From Deltaproteobacteria bacterium (GTDB lineage: Bacteria > Desulfobacterota > Desulfobacteria > C00003060 > C00003106), in NCBI GenBank assembly GCA_019314005.1, contig JAFDAE010000170.1, positions 1 through 9,268 on the forward strand: 9,268 bases of DNA, read 5' to 3'. The notes under the pieces were generated by a model, which had not been told where the DNA came from, ran no database searches, and was given only the letters and a program-made list of their open reading frames with translations. Every line of letters begins with the position of its first letter. Position 1 is the stretch's first letter. Below, in pieces: positions 903 to 4,836 of the stretch. Both the position numbers and the translations under genes were made by a program.

Positions 903-2240
903 CTACAAACTATCAATCACACCATACGTCCGCTCTATTATATCCATTAATTCATCTTCCTTCACGCACAGTGGAAGAAACAAATAGATGATATTCCCCA
1001 GGGGTCGAAGGAGCAATCCCTTTTCCAGCCCTTTTTTGTAAACCTTGAATCCTATCCTTTCTTCAAATGGAAACGGCTCCTTGGTAAATTTATCCTTTAC
1101 AAGCTCGAATGCCGCTACCATCCCTATATATCTCACGTCACCTACAATATCAAGTTCTCTGAATTTTTGCATATTCTGATGCAAAATCGCGATTGTTCCC
1201 GACACCTTTTCCAATGTATTCTCTTTTTCAAACAGCTCTAATGAAGCCACTCCTGCCGCCGTGCTCAACGGGTTGGCTGTGTAAGTGTGGCCATGATAAA
1301 AGGTCTTATTCTCTGTATAGTCCGCGTAAAAGGCTTCATAAACTTCATCAGTTGTCAGTGTGGCGGAAAGAGGAAGACTCCCGTTGGTTATCCCTTTTGA
1401 AAGGCACATAAAATCCGGTTCCACATCCGCATGTTCCACCGCGAACATCTTCCCTGTTCTGCCAAAACCGGTAGCCACTTCATCGACAATCAGATGAATA
1501 TTGTACATCCTGGTGAGTTCCGCGACCTTTTTGAGATATTCAGCCGGGTAAATAATAAATCCACCCGAACCCTGCATCATAGGTTCAAGGATGATAGCGG
1601 CGATCTCCTTGTTCTTTTTCTCAAGCAGTTCTTCCAGTGGATCAATGCACTCTATGGCACAATTCTCTCGTTCCTTTCCACACGGGCATCGATAACAGTA
1701 CGGAGAGGGGATCTTAAATGCAGAAAAAAGGAGCGGGGCAAAGGTTTCCTGAAAGACAGAAACTCCCCCAACGCTCATTGCGCCTACGGTATCCCCGTGA
1801 TACCCGTTCTCAAGCCCGATAAACTTTTCCTTTTCTCCCTGCCCTGTATTCTTCCAGAACTGGAATGACATCTTCAATGCCACCTCACAGGCGGTAGAAC
1901 CATTGTCAGAATAGAATACCCTGGTAAGGTTCCGGGGTGAAACACGGATCAGATGTTCTCCGAGCAGTATCGCGTTCTTATGGGTAAATCCGGCAAAAAG
2001 AACATGATCAAGCTCCTCAAGCTGTTTCTTTATCGCCGACTTGACATGGGGATGGTTGTGCCCGTGTACATTGCTCCACCAGGAAGAGATGGTATCATAA
2101 TAGACGTTTCCCTTATGATCATAGAGGTGAATCCCTTCCGCCCTTTCGATCAGAACAGGATACTCTTCTTCATAGTCTTTCATCTGCGTATATGGATGCC
2201 AAAGATATTTTCTATCTTTTTCCAGTAGTTCGGAATTCAT
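903..2240 (-). CDS. bioA: Adenosylmethionine-8-amino-7-oxononanoate aminotransferase (DAPA synthase)
   Basis: This PLP enzyme converts KAPA (8-amino-7-oxononanoate) to DAPA, normally with S-adenosylmethionine as amino donor. The frame stays open upstream to about 2537, but the start chosen is the ATG at 2240. It has AGGAG nine bases upstream and begins MNSELLEKDRKYLWHPYTQM, the usual BioA opening; the upstream extension only translates a repeat element. The protein is 445 residues, a normal length. Visible family features are WHPYTQ (14-19), the SSWWSNVHGH substrate region (52-61), NGSTACEVALK (113-123), NGYHGDT (145-151), VDEVATGFGRTG (252-263) with Asp253 for the PLP ring nitrogen, SKGITNG (281-287) with Lys282 as the Schiff-base lysine, and GHTYTANPL (317-325). 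A five-cysteine segment (Cys182, 185, 187, 194, 198) is present. It is the last gene of the biotin operon, separated from bioD by 301 bp that hold a repeat element. Confidence 0.96.
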   Translation of the reverse strand: MNSELLEKDRKYLWHPYTQMKDYEEEYPVLIERAEGIHLYDHKGNVYYDTISSWWSNVHGHNHPHVKSAIKKQLEELDHVLFAGFTHKNAILLGEHLIRVSPRNLTRVFYSDNGSTACEVALKMSFQFWKNTGQGEKEKFIGLENGYHGDTVGAMSVGGVSVFQETFAPLLFSAFKIPSPYCYRCPCGKERENCAIECIDPLEELLEKKNKEIAAIILEPMMQGSGGFIIYPAEYLKKVAELTRMYNIHLIVDEVATGFGRTGKMFAVEHADVEPDFMCLSKGITNGSLPLSATLTTDEVYEAFYADYTENKTFYHGHTYTANPLSTAAGVASLELFEKENTLEKVSGTIAILHQNMQKFRELDIVGDVRYIGMVAAFELVKDKFTKEPFPFEERIGFKVYKKGLEKGLLLRPLGNIIYLFLPLCVKEDELMDIIERTYGVIDSL

Positions 2241-2266: not shown

Positions 2267-2310
2267 CGCAACTGCTTAGGTTGTTAGGTTCAAGGTTCAG
2301 GGGTTCAAGG
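2267..2310 (-). repeat. Left inverted end of the bioD-bioA element
   Basis: On the minus strand it reads CCTTGAACC, more heptads of the TGAACCT type, then ACAACCTAAGCAGTTGCG. It pairs with 2492-2535 as an inverted repeat. Its outer 33 bases match 4009-4041 at 28 of 33 positions in the same orientation. Confidence 0.75.
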
Positions 2311-2487
2311 TTCAGGGTTGGTTGCCTTGATTTTTTCATATTTCGTGAGATAGTTGATAAATCCACGAACGGCAGCACGTGTTCGTCTGGCCTGTTCGTA
2401 GACATCTTTGAATTCGTCGGGCGATATGTACTCTTCATCCACGGCGAGGTAGAGTTCGCTCTGGACTTCTGTATATGACCGCGCTCT
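2305..2487 (-). pseudogene. Four-helix-bundle (S23/IVP-type) protein, C-terminal remnant
   Basis: In a frame different from bioA, the minus strand encodes about 60 residues after an in-frame TAG at 2490-2488 and ends at a TGA (2307-2305) inside the left heptad array. The peptide contains TEVQSELYLAVDEEYI, then SPDEFKDVYEQA, then VRGFINYLTKYEK. This is the pattern of the last two helices of the four-helix-bundle protein family named from 23S rRNA intervening sequences (TIGR02436/PF05635), where intact members have S.xExxSqLylAxdxxYI and gfixYL. The first two helices and the start are missing, and no start codon or ribosome site is visible, so this is a 5'-truncated remnant. The family assignment is by pattern recognition; the function of these proteins is not established. 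Confidence 0.7.
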
Positions 2488-2491
2488 CTAA

Positions 2492-2535
2492 CCTTGAACC
2501 GTGAACCCTGAACCTCACAAACCTGAGTAGTTACC
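2492..2535 (+). repeat. Right inverted end of the bioD-bioA element
   Basis: On the plus strand it reads CCTTGAACC, further TGAACC heptads, then ACCTGAGTAGTTACC. It is an inverted copy of 2267-2310. Its GAGTAGTTAC tail is identical to the tail of the third copy at 4009-4041, read on the opposite strand. Confidence 0.75.
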
Positions 2536-2541
2536 AACCAT

Positions 2542-3231
2542 TCAACTTATCGCTTGCAGTATACTTGCCCCTATCGGCTCAAATTTCTCAACCAATTTTT
2601 CGTTTGAATCGACTTTTGGAAGTGCTCCAAAAGATCGTATTCCTCCAAGATGCGAGATAATCTTTATATTATCATCTTCGATTATCTTGTCGCCCTCACC
2701 CGCAAAATTAAAAACCATCCCTAATATCTTTATATCTCTCTTCCTTAGAGCCTCTATCGTAAGAAGGGTATGATTGATAGTCCCCAAGCCGCTATGCGTG
2801 ACTATCAAAACCGGAAGGGAGAGTGCCGCCACCAGATCGATAAGAAGATAGTCTCTGGCAAGGGGGACCATAACTCCGCCCACTCCTTCCACCAGGAGTA
2901 AGTCATGCCTTTGCTGGAGGGTATGGTAGCTTTTCTTTATCTTATCTATACTGATTTTTTTTTCTTCCAGTTCTGCGGCAAGATGTGGAGAGGCTGGAAA
3001 ATCAAATGTATATGGAGATATGAGAGTGGGATCGATCGCCTCCCTTTTTCCACCAAGCATCTTCAGGCAATAGTCGATGTCCTCGGAAGTATTCTTGTTT
3101 CCCGTGCTCACCCATTTCTGAATCCCGACGTTGATACCCTGAAGCTTGAAAAACCGGGCCAGACAGCCGCATACAACGGTTTTTCCCACGCCCGTATTTG
3201 TGCCGGTAATGAATAGGCTTTTGTTCTTCAT
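2542..3231 (-). CDS. bioD: ATP-dependent dethiobiotin synthetase
   Basis: This cytosolic enzyme closes the ureido ring of dethiobiotin from DAPA, CO2 and ATP. The protein is 229 residues, normal for BioD. The P-loop GTNTGVGKT is at residues 10-18. Lys39 in GIQKWVSTG corresponds to the catalytic lysine of the family (QKxVxTG). SPYTFDFPASPH (about 72-83) matches the conserved substrate segment. LLVEGVGGVMVPL (about 111-123) is the Mg/carbamate-binding EGAGG-type motif. HSGLGTINHTLLT (about 145-157) and a following NF.G motif match the nucleotide-base pocket. The ATG at 3231 overlaps the bioC stop by ATGA, so translation is probably coupled to bioC; an AAGGGAAG stretch lies just upstream. The stop codon is followed almost at once by the repeat element. 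Confidence 0.96.
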   Translation of the reverse strand: MKNKSLFITGTNTGVGKTVVCGCLARFFKLQGINVGIQKWVSTGNKNTSEDIDYCLKMLGGKREAIDPTLISPYTFDFPASPHLAAELEEKKISIDKIKKSYHTLQQRHDLLLVEGVGGVMVPLARDYLLIDLVAALSLPVLIVTHSGLGTINHTLLTIEALRKRDIKILGMVFNFAGEGDKIIEDDNIKIISHLGGIRSFGALPKVDSNEKLVEKFEPIGASILQAIS

Positions 3232-4004
3232 CGCTTCCCTTCACATAAAAATACCTGATAACTTGTCCTGATAGATCCGAATCTTTTGATATAGGCCTTT
3301 TCAGCTTTTTTTATGAGCGCCGGAGTGAACAGAATATTGTTACCGTTTCTTCGAATGTTCACCCCCGTGTATTTCATCGTCTTTAATAAATCGAGAAGGT
3401 TGTTATATTCCCTTGTCAATACAGTTTCGCTTGTTTTCACTTTTTTAAAGATCTCATGCAGAAAAGATTCTATCTCGTCAAATTGTCTAAAATATCTTGC
3501 TGAGATCTTCACCTTTTCCGGCAACACCTCTTCCATCACCTCATGAAGCTCATAGAATGTTTCAGGGCCCATCATTGAAAAAAGGATTAGCCCTTCATCG
3601 GCAAGCAAAGTTTTGTAGTGTTTTATTACCTTTTTAAAATCCGTGAGCCACTGGAAAGTGGAATTGGAGGTGATCAAATCGTAACCTTGTTCAGTTTTAA
3701 AAGAAAAAGTCTCCGCATCCTCGACGCACAAGCAGACCCTTTCATTATTGTTTAATTTTTCAGCTGCGCGGGCGATCATTGCTCCGGAAAAGTCTATAGC
3801 GGTAATGTAGGCCTCAGAGAACCTTTGTGTGAGCATGTGAGTATAATTCCCTGTCCCGCATCCGACCTCAAGGATGTTCTGAAACAAACGGCCGTCAAGC
3901 CGATCGATCAGTATGCCGGCTACTGCCTTCTGGATAAAGGCATAGTGGTCATAGGTCGGTGCGGCCCTTGAAAACGATTGTCTTATCCTTTCTTTATATT
4001 CCAT
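3228..4004 (-). CDS. bioC: Malonyl-ACP O-methyltransferase
   Basis: BioC methylates the free carboxyl of malonyl-ACP with S-adenosylmethionine, disguising it so that fatty acid synthesis can elongate it to pimeloyl-ACP methyl ester. The protein is 258 residues, typical. It opens with the BioC signature (I.QSFSRAAPTYDHYAFIQ, about 7-25). SAM-binding motif I is LEVGCGTGNYT (45-55), followed by the acidic AIDFSGAMI (69-77), VEDAETFSF (94-102) and the TSNSTFQWL motif (112-120). The C-terminal half has the BioC form with MGPETFYELHEV near 145-156 and a late YTGVN at 212-216. The start is the ATG at 4004. The nearest GGAG is 12 bases upstream, inside the terminal module of a repeat element. It overlaps bioD by four bases. 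Confidence 0.95.
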   Translation of the reverse strand: MEYKERIRQSFSRAAPTYDHYAFIQKAVAGILIDRLDGRLFQNILEVGCGTGNYTHMLTQRFSEAYITAIDFSGAMIARAAEKLNNNERVCLCVEDAETFSFKTEQGYDLITSNSTFQWLTDFKKVIKHYKTLLADEGLILFSMMGPETFYELHEVMEEVLPEKVKISARYFRQFDEIESFLHEIFKKVKTSETVLTREYNNLLDLLKTMKYTGVNIRRNGNNILFTPALIKKAEKAYIKRFGSIRTSYQVFLCEGKR

Positions 4005-4008
4005 TAAA

Positions 4009-4041
4009 CGTAACTACTCCGGTTGTTGGGTTCAAGGTTCA
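4009..4041 (-). repeat. Third copy of the element end, directly upstream of bioC
   Basis: Read on the minus strand this is TGAACCTTGAACC, CAACAACC, GGAGTAGTTACG. It matches 2267-2299 at 28 of 33 positions in the same orientation, and its GAGTAGTTAC tail also occurs in the right end at 2492-2535. Its first TGA is the stop codon of the bioH frame, and its GGAG is the only plausible ribosome site for bioC. Confidence 0.75.
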
Positions 4042-4074
4042 CAGTTCAATATCTTCAAAACGTTCAATTCTCAT
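4039..4074 (-). pseudogene. Four-helix-bundle protein, first 11 codons only
   Basis: The minus strand from an ATG at 4074 encodes MRIERFEDIEL and then stops at the TGA that begins the heptad array. M+IERFEDIE is the characteristic opening of many TIGR02436 four-helix-bundle proteins, normally followed by a tryptophan-containing helix. Everything after the eleventh codon is lost. It lies in the same frame as the bioH tail, so these residues are the last 11 of the BioH-like product. Confidence 0.55.
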
Positions 4075-4836
4075 CGCTCTATAGGAGACTGTCCGAGAAT
4101 TATGTCCGCAACGAAAAAGAGAGAGAACGAGACAAAATTTTCGCAAATTTGAGGAGAATAGCAGGCCTATTTGACGAAAACTTGCGGGAAAAGATAGCCC
4201 TTCCATTAATTCCAATAACTCGGAATAAGGCGCAATCCCGTCTTTTTTGCCATGAACCAATCGAACAGCGTGTTTGTCCGGCAATGCAGGTTCAAGCTCC
4301 TGTTGTGCCAGGTAATCCAACCCTTTTAAAAGCGACTCCAGGTCAAATATTTCTACATAGGATGAGAACAGGCGTTCATTGAACCATTTAAAAGCACGCT
4401 TGTTACCTAAAAAACAATTTCTATAGAATTGGGTCAGATAAAGTTTACGGTCCTCTATCAACATGGCTTTCTGTGCATCAATCTGTTCCTTTGGGAATCT
4501 TTTCCGCATAGAGACCAGAAAGATTTCTCTTACAGCCTGCCCGTATTCCTTCAAAAAATTAAGGGCTAAAAATCCCCCCATTGACCATCCCAACATAGAT
4601 ACTTCTTTAATATTATACCGCGCAAGTACATGTATAAGATCCTCATTGAAACGCTCTATATCGATCCCCTGCGAAATCAGATAATTGAAATCGAGATCCA
4701 GAGGTTCAAATATCCGCGCGTCAAACCCCCACCCCGGCACTAACACCAAGGTTCTCTCATATCCCCTATTCTGGTATTTAAACTTAGAGACCTTTGCATA
4801 ACTGCCATTTTTCCGTGATGCGGTGTCAGGCTTCAA
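4039..4836 (-). CDS. bioH: BioH-like pimeloyl-ACP methyl ester esterase with a replaced C-terminus
   Basis: This is an alpha/beta hydrolase, placed between bioF and bioC as bioH is in Pseudomonas-type clusters, so it should hydrolyse pimeloyl-ACP methyl ester before BioF acts. The start is the TTG at 4836, chosen because GAGGA lies seven bases upstream. Visible features are the oxyanion-side strand LVLVPGWGFDARIF (30-43), the nucleophile elbow GWSMGG with Ser85 (83-88), and the acid HGKKDGIAP with Asp199 (195-203). The third triad residue should be a histidine in a GHxPF-like motif about 28 residues after the Asp, near 227. None is there. After residue 217 the protein becomes unlike any hydrolase, and its last 11 residues are the start of a four-helix-bundle protein. 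The only later histidine is His245 in RCGHNS, 46 residues after the Asp. The 265-residue length looks normal only because of the foreign tail. The protein may be inactive; the name rests on fold and position. Confidence 0.75.
   Translation of the reverse strand: MKPDTASRKNGSYAKVSKFKYQNRGYERTLVLVPGWGFDARIFEPLDLDFNYLISQGIDIERFNEDLIHVLARYNIKEVSMLGWSMGGFLALNFLKEYGQAVREIFLVSMRKRFPKEQIDAQKAMLIEDRKLYLTQFYRNCFLGNKRAFKWFNERLFSSYVEIFDLESLLKGLDYLAQQELEPALPDKHAVRLVHGKKDGIAPYSELLELMEGLSFPASFRQIGLLFSSNLRKFCLVLSLFRCGHNSRTVSYRAMRIERFEDIEL
4138..4180 (-). repeat. Hairpin in the foreign tail of bioH
   Basis: TTTTCG plus CAAAT (4138-4148) pairs with ATTTG plus CGAAAA (4169-4180), an 11-bp stem with a single bulged base and a loop of about 20 nt containing AGGCCT. 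No U-tract follows, so it is not an obvious terminator. A structured non-coding segment inside a coding frame fits the idea that this part of bioH came from a repeat element. Confidence 0.55.

What the first reader, a model, noticed from the sequence alone, without database searches (positions are those of the whole stretch)
4009..4185. A second related element appears to have overwritten the 3' end of bioH
The hydrolase likeness stops after residue 217. What follows is a hairpin-rich leader, then the start of a four-helix-bundle protein (MRIERFEDIEL), then the shared end repeat whose TGA serves as the bioH stop. The catalytic histidine expected about 28 residues after Asp199 is absent, and no other frame of the tail supplies a GHxPF motif. 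Either BioH is dead and another esterase (BioG, BioJ, BioK, BioV type or an unlinked BioH) does the job, or the stray His245 was recruited.
Basis: partly seen in the sequence, partly recalled or inferred. Interest (0 to 1): 0.75.

Follow-up and report, generated by a model that had tools for sequence, protein, structure and literature searches.

The report
bioH truncated by nested mobile repeats
A vitamin-making (biotin) gene in an uncultured sulfate-reducer-like bacterium has lost its last stretch, including a catalytic residue, and now ends inside two small nested mobile DNA repeats: probably a recently broken gene, an instructive but fairly ordinary case of gene decay.

Summary
The product of window 4836-4039(-) matches BioH-type hydrolases up to residue ~216 and is then repeat-derived. 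All 24 other hydrolase hits keep a GH.[PI]F motif; the window lacks it. The 'hairpin-rich leader' is the right two-thirds of a 161-bp MITE with 18-bp terminal inverted repeats, present in dozens of copies in relatives. Next come 11 codons and the right end of a gutted 23S-IVP/four-helix-bundle (PF05635) inverted-repeat element, which supplies the TGA stop. The closest locus with DNA, L001, shows the likely earlier stage: intact bioH, then the left part of that element, then the left part of the MITE. So the MITE sat inside the element at the bioH/bioC junction, and a deletion (165 bp relative to L001) fused bioH codon ~216 to MITE nt ~60. BioH is most likely inactive, yet its retained part is unchanged at 55 of 55 conserved sites, so the loss looks recent. 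AlphaFold gives no ordered place for His245. No whole genome is held for the window, so a second esterase could not be sought.

The parts
4191..4836 (-). Retained bioH coding part (TTG start at 4836, about 215 codons) with Ser85 (GWSMGG) and Asp199 (HGKKD)
   Evidence: 91.9% identical to P0002 over 198 residues
4185..4190 (-). Deletion junction; TTCCCG (minus strand) fits both a bioH-type sequence (TCTTTTCCCGGG in L003) and some MITE copies (AAATTCCCGCAA in L074 and L070), so the breakpoint is ambiguous within 6 bases
4084..4190 (-). MITE fragment: about nt 55/60 to 161 of a 161-bp element; right terminal inverted repeat AATTCTCGGACAGTCTCC; left third missing
4082..4083 (-). TA next to the MITE's right end (inferred target-site duplication; L001 has TA at the left end)
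4010..4081 (-). Right part of a gutted 23S-IVP/four-helix-bundle inverted-repeat element: start codon at 4074, 11 codons (MRIERFEDIEL), then the terminal repeat ending GGAGTAGTTAC
4039..4041 (-). TGA stop of the fused bioH reading frame, supplied by the four-helix-bundle element's terminal repeat
3228..4004 (-). bioC, full length; in relatives L002 and L128 its start overlaps the end of bioH
2267..2534 (-). A second gutted four-helix-bundle element between bioD and bioA (3' part of the ORF, PF05635 match below the gathering score, flanked by the same kind of end repeats)

Best explanation
The bioH/bioC junction of a biotin operon was first entered by a small inverted-repeat element, a gutted 23S-rRNA-IVP/four-helix-bundle element. 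A 161-bp TA-flanked MITE then inserted inside it. Later, in the window's lineage, a deletion (165 bp relative to L001) joined bioH codon ~216 to MITE nt ~60 across a short microhomology (TTCCCG) at the foot of the MITE's inner hairpin. About 25 native residues of BioH, with the catalytic histidine and the final strand and helix, were replaced by about 48 MITE- and element-encoded residues. The product is most likely an inactive esterase (a young pseudogene), so the cell needs another pimeloyl-ACP methyl esterase or biotin from outside. Shown: the two elements, the truncation, the missing His, and the intact relative. Inferred: the order of events, slippage at the hairpin, and loss of activity.
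For: The tail equals a dispersed MITE; TIR matches 29+40 in G001 and 30+26 in G014 against at most 1 per strand for the reversed-pattern control; strong fold of a full copy (z -7.1). L001 has intact bioH followed by the left ends of both elements, in the register that the window's right ends complete. In L002 and L128 bioH overlaps bioC. 24 of 24 homologues keep GH.[PI]F. AlphaFold: intact P0002 is ordered to about residue 230, with a last strand at 206-209 and helix at 222-228 (two of its five models had low mean pLDDT, 62.5 and 47.0); window residues 215-265 are below pLDDT 50. BioH chains of the PDB match the intact model at TMt 0.70-0.72 and the window model at 0.54-0.59. BioH, BioG and BioK share a Ser-Asp-His triad (PMC3494674, PMC5438404; passages).
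Against: The retained part shows no clear decay: 0 of 55 sites invariant in 14 intact homologues are changed (8 of those 14 also score 0 in the leave-one-out control; three distant homologues were left out), 5 unique substitutions against 8 and 16 in two intact relatives, no stop or frameshift. This fits a recent loss but also continued selection. The pre-deletion state of the window's own lineage is not held; L001 is only about 72% identical in the retained BioH. In L001 the left end of the four-helix-bundle element lacks its first 10 bases, so that element's target duplication is unsettled. No autonomous partner of the MITE was seen.
Confidence: 0.8

Rival explanations
1. A half-MITE or the four-helix-bundle element landed directly in bioH and overwrote the 3' end in one step.
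For: The window alone looks like this; RsmG in P0026 is also fused at nearly the same MITE point.
Against: L001 carries the left ends of both elements just downstream of an intact bioH in matching order, and a simple insertion would not remove host codons.
Confidence: 0.1
2. The fused protein is still an active esterase because His245 (RCGHNS, MITE-encoded) replaces the lost histidine.
For: Retained residues are fully conserved at the invariant sites; the frame stays open for 265 aa.
Against: Tail pLDDT about 30; Asp-His spacing 46 instead of 28; the last strand and helix are lost too; the GHNS peptide is one MITE reading frame and also appears in an unrelated RsmG.
Confidence: 0.06
3. The junction is an assembly chimera made at a high-copy repeat.
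For: The MITE is high-copy and contigs of a relative end inside it (L001 and others of G001). Support for the junction is one contig; the protein cluster lists 2 member sequences and 1 contig, and I could not see whether the second is independent.
Against: The join is in the middle of the MITE across about 6 shared bases, too short for an ordinary k-mer or overlap join (general knowledge); both sides are in operon order and L001 has a related nest there.
Confidence: 0.08

Closest known systems
Operon-encoded BioH (pimeloyl-ACP methyl ester esterase; PDB 1m33, 4etw; TIGR01738)
   Same: alpha/beta hydrolase with GWSMGG and HGKKD, directly upstream of bioC; an intact relative's model matches BioH structures
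   Different: the catalytic His with the last strand and helix is missing; even intact relatives score far below the TIGR01738 cut-off (44.0 and 47.3 against 206.95 bits), so the name rests on fold and context
Bacterial MITEs that fuse in frame with genes (Rickettsia palindromic elements, QMITE1 of Coxiella, intragenic ERIC; review PMC10969869, passages seen)
   Same: short, multi-copy, TIR-bounded, hairpin-forming, adds an in-frame peptide to a host protein
   Different: the fusion arises by a deletion that ends inside the element and removes an active-site residue, not by clean in-frame insertion
23S rRNA-intervening sequence / four-helix-bundle element (PF05635, TIGR02436; Coxiella IVS, PMC4990558, abstract start in a listing only)
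   Same: start of the ORF in the window tail; full copy in L067
   Different: here in a protein-coding operon, gutted to 11 codons, with GGTTC-rich terminal repeats and hosting a MITE

Membership tests
BioH-type pimeloyl-ACP methyl esterase | nucleophile elbow GxSxG | tested here: met
   GWSMGG, Ser85
BioH-type pimeloyl-ACP methyl esterase | catalytic Asp | tested here: met
   HGKKD, Asp199
BioH-type pimeloyl-ACP methyl esterase | catalytic His in a GHxPF-like motif | tested here: not met
   absent; 24 of 24 homologues have GH.[PI]F
BioH-type pimeloyl-ACP methyl esterase | gene next to bioC in a bio operon | tested here: met
   order bioB-F-H-C-D-A, named from Pfam domains and order
BioH-type pimeloyl-ACP methyl esterase | TIGR01738 equivalog cut-off | tested here: not met
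   31.1 bits against 206.95; intact relatives 44.0 and 47.3
BioH-type pimeloyl-ACP methyl esterase | complements an E. coli bioH mutant | not testable with these tools
   bench test
MITE | short, terminal inverted repeats, no transposase | tested here: met
   161 bp, TIR GGAGGCTGTCCGAGAATT
MITE | dispersed in many copies | tested here: met
   64, 63 and 72 matches (both strands and partial copies counted; 40 candidates scored in each) in G001, G013, G014; 0 in G012
MITE | target-site duplication | tested here: inconclusive
   TA on the left in 21, on the right in 14 and on both sides in 13 of 25 distinct full-length copies
MITE | autonomous partner with the same TIR | tested here: inconclusive
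   by eye, no inward-facing TIR pair at the spacing of an insertion sequence in the listing for G001, G003, G014
23S-IVP/four-helix-bundle element | PF05635 ORF | tested here: inconclusive
   a full copy in L067 passes the cut-off (101 against 33.8 bits); the window tail has only 11 codons

The most novel reading that the evidence does not exclude
The foot of the MITE's inner hairpin is a recurrent deletion end point that turns nearby insertions into in-frame gene/half-MITE fusions. BioH in the window and RsmG in P0026 are joined to the same MITE frame at nt ~60 and ~51, and L079 has an internal deletion ending at the same place. The element would then act as a repeated maker of new C-terminal tails.
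Probability: 0.15. Interest if true: 0.5.

Novelty: new member of a known kind. Interest (0 to 1): 0.3.

Why it matters
It is a clear snapshot of how small non-autonomous repeats can erode a metabolic operon in two steps (nesting at a gene junction, then deletion into the neighbour), and it warns that a 'bioH' annotated here is probably not a working esterase. If the cell still makes biotin, it must hold another pimeloyl-ACP methyl esterase. Freestanding enzymes of that kind are not readily identified by sequence (PMC5438404 and PMC3494674, passages seen), so this lineage would be a place to look for one.

Tried and rejected
Tested and rejected: a C-terminal remnant of bioH elsewhere in the window (best E 0.21); a known RNA family in the window (0 matches at Rfam gathering scores); orthologues sharing the tail (: 0 of 24 other hydrolases; a tail-only search returned only the window and P0026 among 5 candidates, and sees only proteins of 0.55-1.75 times the query's length). 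A 20-base right-end pattern had no exact match in viral contigs.

dN/dS of the window against L001: retained bioH 0.245, bioF 0.193, bioB 0.106 by NG86, and 0.464, 0.251, 0.109 by YN00; against L003 bioH is not raised (NG86 0.075, bioF 0.113, bioB 0.148). Higher values against L001 could mean relaxed selection on bioH in either lineage, but BioH is also the least conserved of the three in each comparison with L001-L003, so I do not lean on this.

Paper searches listed no paper whose title or shown abstract start describes this MITE or a MITE-truncated bioH; the lists were cut to 12-20 papers each, and I saw passages of three papers only (PMC5438404, PMC10969869, PMC3494674). Genomes G013 and G014 gave no match to bioH, bioC, bioF or bioA at the thresholds used, which may be pathway loss or incomplete bins; G001 also gave no bioC, its bioH contig ending inside the MITE, and its bioA is cut by a contig end.

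Full report
What is there. The window holds a biotin operon on the minus strand in the order bioB, bioF, bioH, bioC, bioD, bioA, named here from Pfam domains and gene order. The reading frame at 4836-4039 is called bioH from its fold and its place beside bioC. Pfam finds an alpha/beta hydrolase to residue 217. A protein search gave 26 hits: the window itself, 24 other hydrolases and one RsmG. In an alignment of the window with 17 of those 24 the likeness breaks at about residues 215-217. All 24 of 24 carry a GH.[PI]F motif; in P0002, the closest, the triad residues are Ser72, Asp186 and His214. The window keeps Ser85 and Asp199, and its only later histidine is His245, 46 residues after the Asp instead of 28. 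No [GAS]H.PF motif and no credible piece of the lost C-terminus lies elsewhere in the window.

What the tail is. On the minus strand, bases 4190-4084 are the right two-thirds of a MITE. In G001, the genome of locus L001 (MAG CSMAG_340), the stretch from 4185 on has seven matches at 95-97% over 102-107 bp, among 45 matches in all. Full copies are 161 bp, begin GGAGGCTGTCCGAGAATT and end in its reverse complement. TA lies on both sides in 13 of 25 distinct full-length copies, on the left in 21 and on the right in 14. As a single DNA strand a full copy folds far better than its shuffles (z -7.1). The window fragment folds less strikingly as RNA (z -2.1, 6 of 200 shuffles as good). In a sample of the order, 15 of 291 genomes had a match (at most 2 candidates scored in each); within the family, 3 of 4. 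The control for the terminal repeat, the pattern read backwards, gave at most 1 match per strand and genome against 26-40 in G001 and G014.

Bases 4083-4010 are the right part of another element (the first two, TA, being the MITE's inferred target duplication). In G001 its two best copies run from GTAACTACTCAGGTTCAC through GGTTCAAGGTTAGAGAGCGATGAGAATTGAACGTTTTGAAGATATTGAACCGTGAACC to a right-hand end like CTGAGTAGTTAC. A full-length version in G002 encodes a 133-residue protein matching PF05635 (23S_rRNA_IVP, 101 bits) and TIGR02436 (four helix bundle protein). The window version keeps 11 codons and the end repeat, whose TGA stops the bioH frame. A second gutted copy sits between bioD and bioA at about 2267-2534; its PF05635 match is below the gathering score (18.4 against 33.8 bits).

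How it arose. In L002 and L128 bioH overlaps bioC, as is often so for operon-borne bioH (PMC5438404, passages seen). In L001, bioH is intact through GHLPFLEPDFKERLF. It is followed by the left part of the four-helix-bundle element, then by the left part of the MITE, which enters at a TA that fits the window's right-hand part. The contig ends inside the MITE. The two loci thus show the left and right parts of what looks like one nested insertion. Measured against L001 the window lacks 165 bp: about 71 bp of bioH, 36 bp of the first element and 58 bp of the MITE (split by position). The junction letters TTCCCG occur in a bioH of this group (L003) and in MITE copies (L074, L070), just before the inner hairpin of the MITE. 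I infer a slippage-type deletion.

Is BioH dead. The lost part holds the catalytic histidine, the last strand and the last helix. AlphaFold gives the intact P0002 an ordered C-terminus to about residue 230 (two of the five models were poor). In the window model residues 215-265 are below pLDDT 50, with block means near 30 from 221 on. Against decay, the retained part is in good order: 0 of 55 sites invariant in 14 intact homologues are changed (8 of those 14 also score 0 when left out in turn; the three most distant of the aligned homologues were not used). In a three-way comparison the window has 5 unique substitutions against 8 in P0002 and 16 in P0003. dN/dS against L001 is higher for bioH than for bioF and bioB by two methods, but not against L003. 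So the break is recent, or something still selects the remaining protein. I favour a young pseudogene. BioG with its serine changed to alanine was inactive and did not complement (PMC3494674, passage seen), which shows how such enzymes depend on the triad, though not for this histidine.

A parallel case. P0026 is an RsmG that carries the same MITE peptide (QISASFRQIGLLFSSNLRKFCLVLTLFRYGHNSRTAS) in place of its own last part; relatives G014, G013 and G001 have RsmG with other, matching ends. Its break is at MITE nt ~51, the window's at ~60, and L079 has an internal deletion ending at the same place. P0026 was found through this very peptide, so the shared frame is forced by detection and the coincidence of break points is suggestive only.

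Limits. No whole genome is held for the window, so another esterase or a transporter could not be sought. The DNA of P0002 and P0003 was not reached. A chimeric assembly cannot be excluded without reads, though a join across six shared bases inside a repeat is not the usual way chimeras arise (general knowledge); the protein cluster lists 2 member sequences and 1 contig, and I cannot tell whether the second is independent. Genomes G013 and G014 show many MITE copies but no match to bioH, bioC, bioF or bioA; this may hint at loss of the pathway in the family or only at incomplete bins.

Verdict. It is a new instance of a known kind of event, gene truncation by non-autonomous repeats, with a readable two-step history.

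Noticed in passing
L003 8672-8935 (G003): The bioH/bioC junction of another Desulfobacterales genome also carries an inverted-repeat insert with a gutted frame starting MKRVYELDVYKLPEV, which by eye resembles four-helix-bundle proteins (no family scan was run on it). It looks like an independent entry at the same junction; bioH there ends EPDFNLN but keeps GHLPF.
   Followed up: partly
P0002 and P0004 C-termini; L001 8670-8752: Two intact relatives end in GSQFRGSRFK..., a translation of the GGTTC end repeat; in L001 the MITE itself supplies the bioH stop codon.
   Followed up: partly
P0026: RsmG of a Deltaproteobacteria MAG ends in the same MITE-encoded peptide and lacks its native C-terminus.
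   Followed up: partly
G013, G014: Two genomes of the same family with many MITE copies gave no match to bioH, bioC, bioF or bioA: possible biotin auxotrophs or incomplete bins.
   Followed up: no
L086 1501-1666: A shortened MITE variant of about 70 bp sits close behind a tRNA-Val gene (1591-1666, minus strand); several other copies in G001 and G014 are likewise about 70-bp mini-versions with both terminal repeats.
   Followed up: partly
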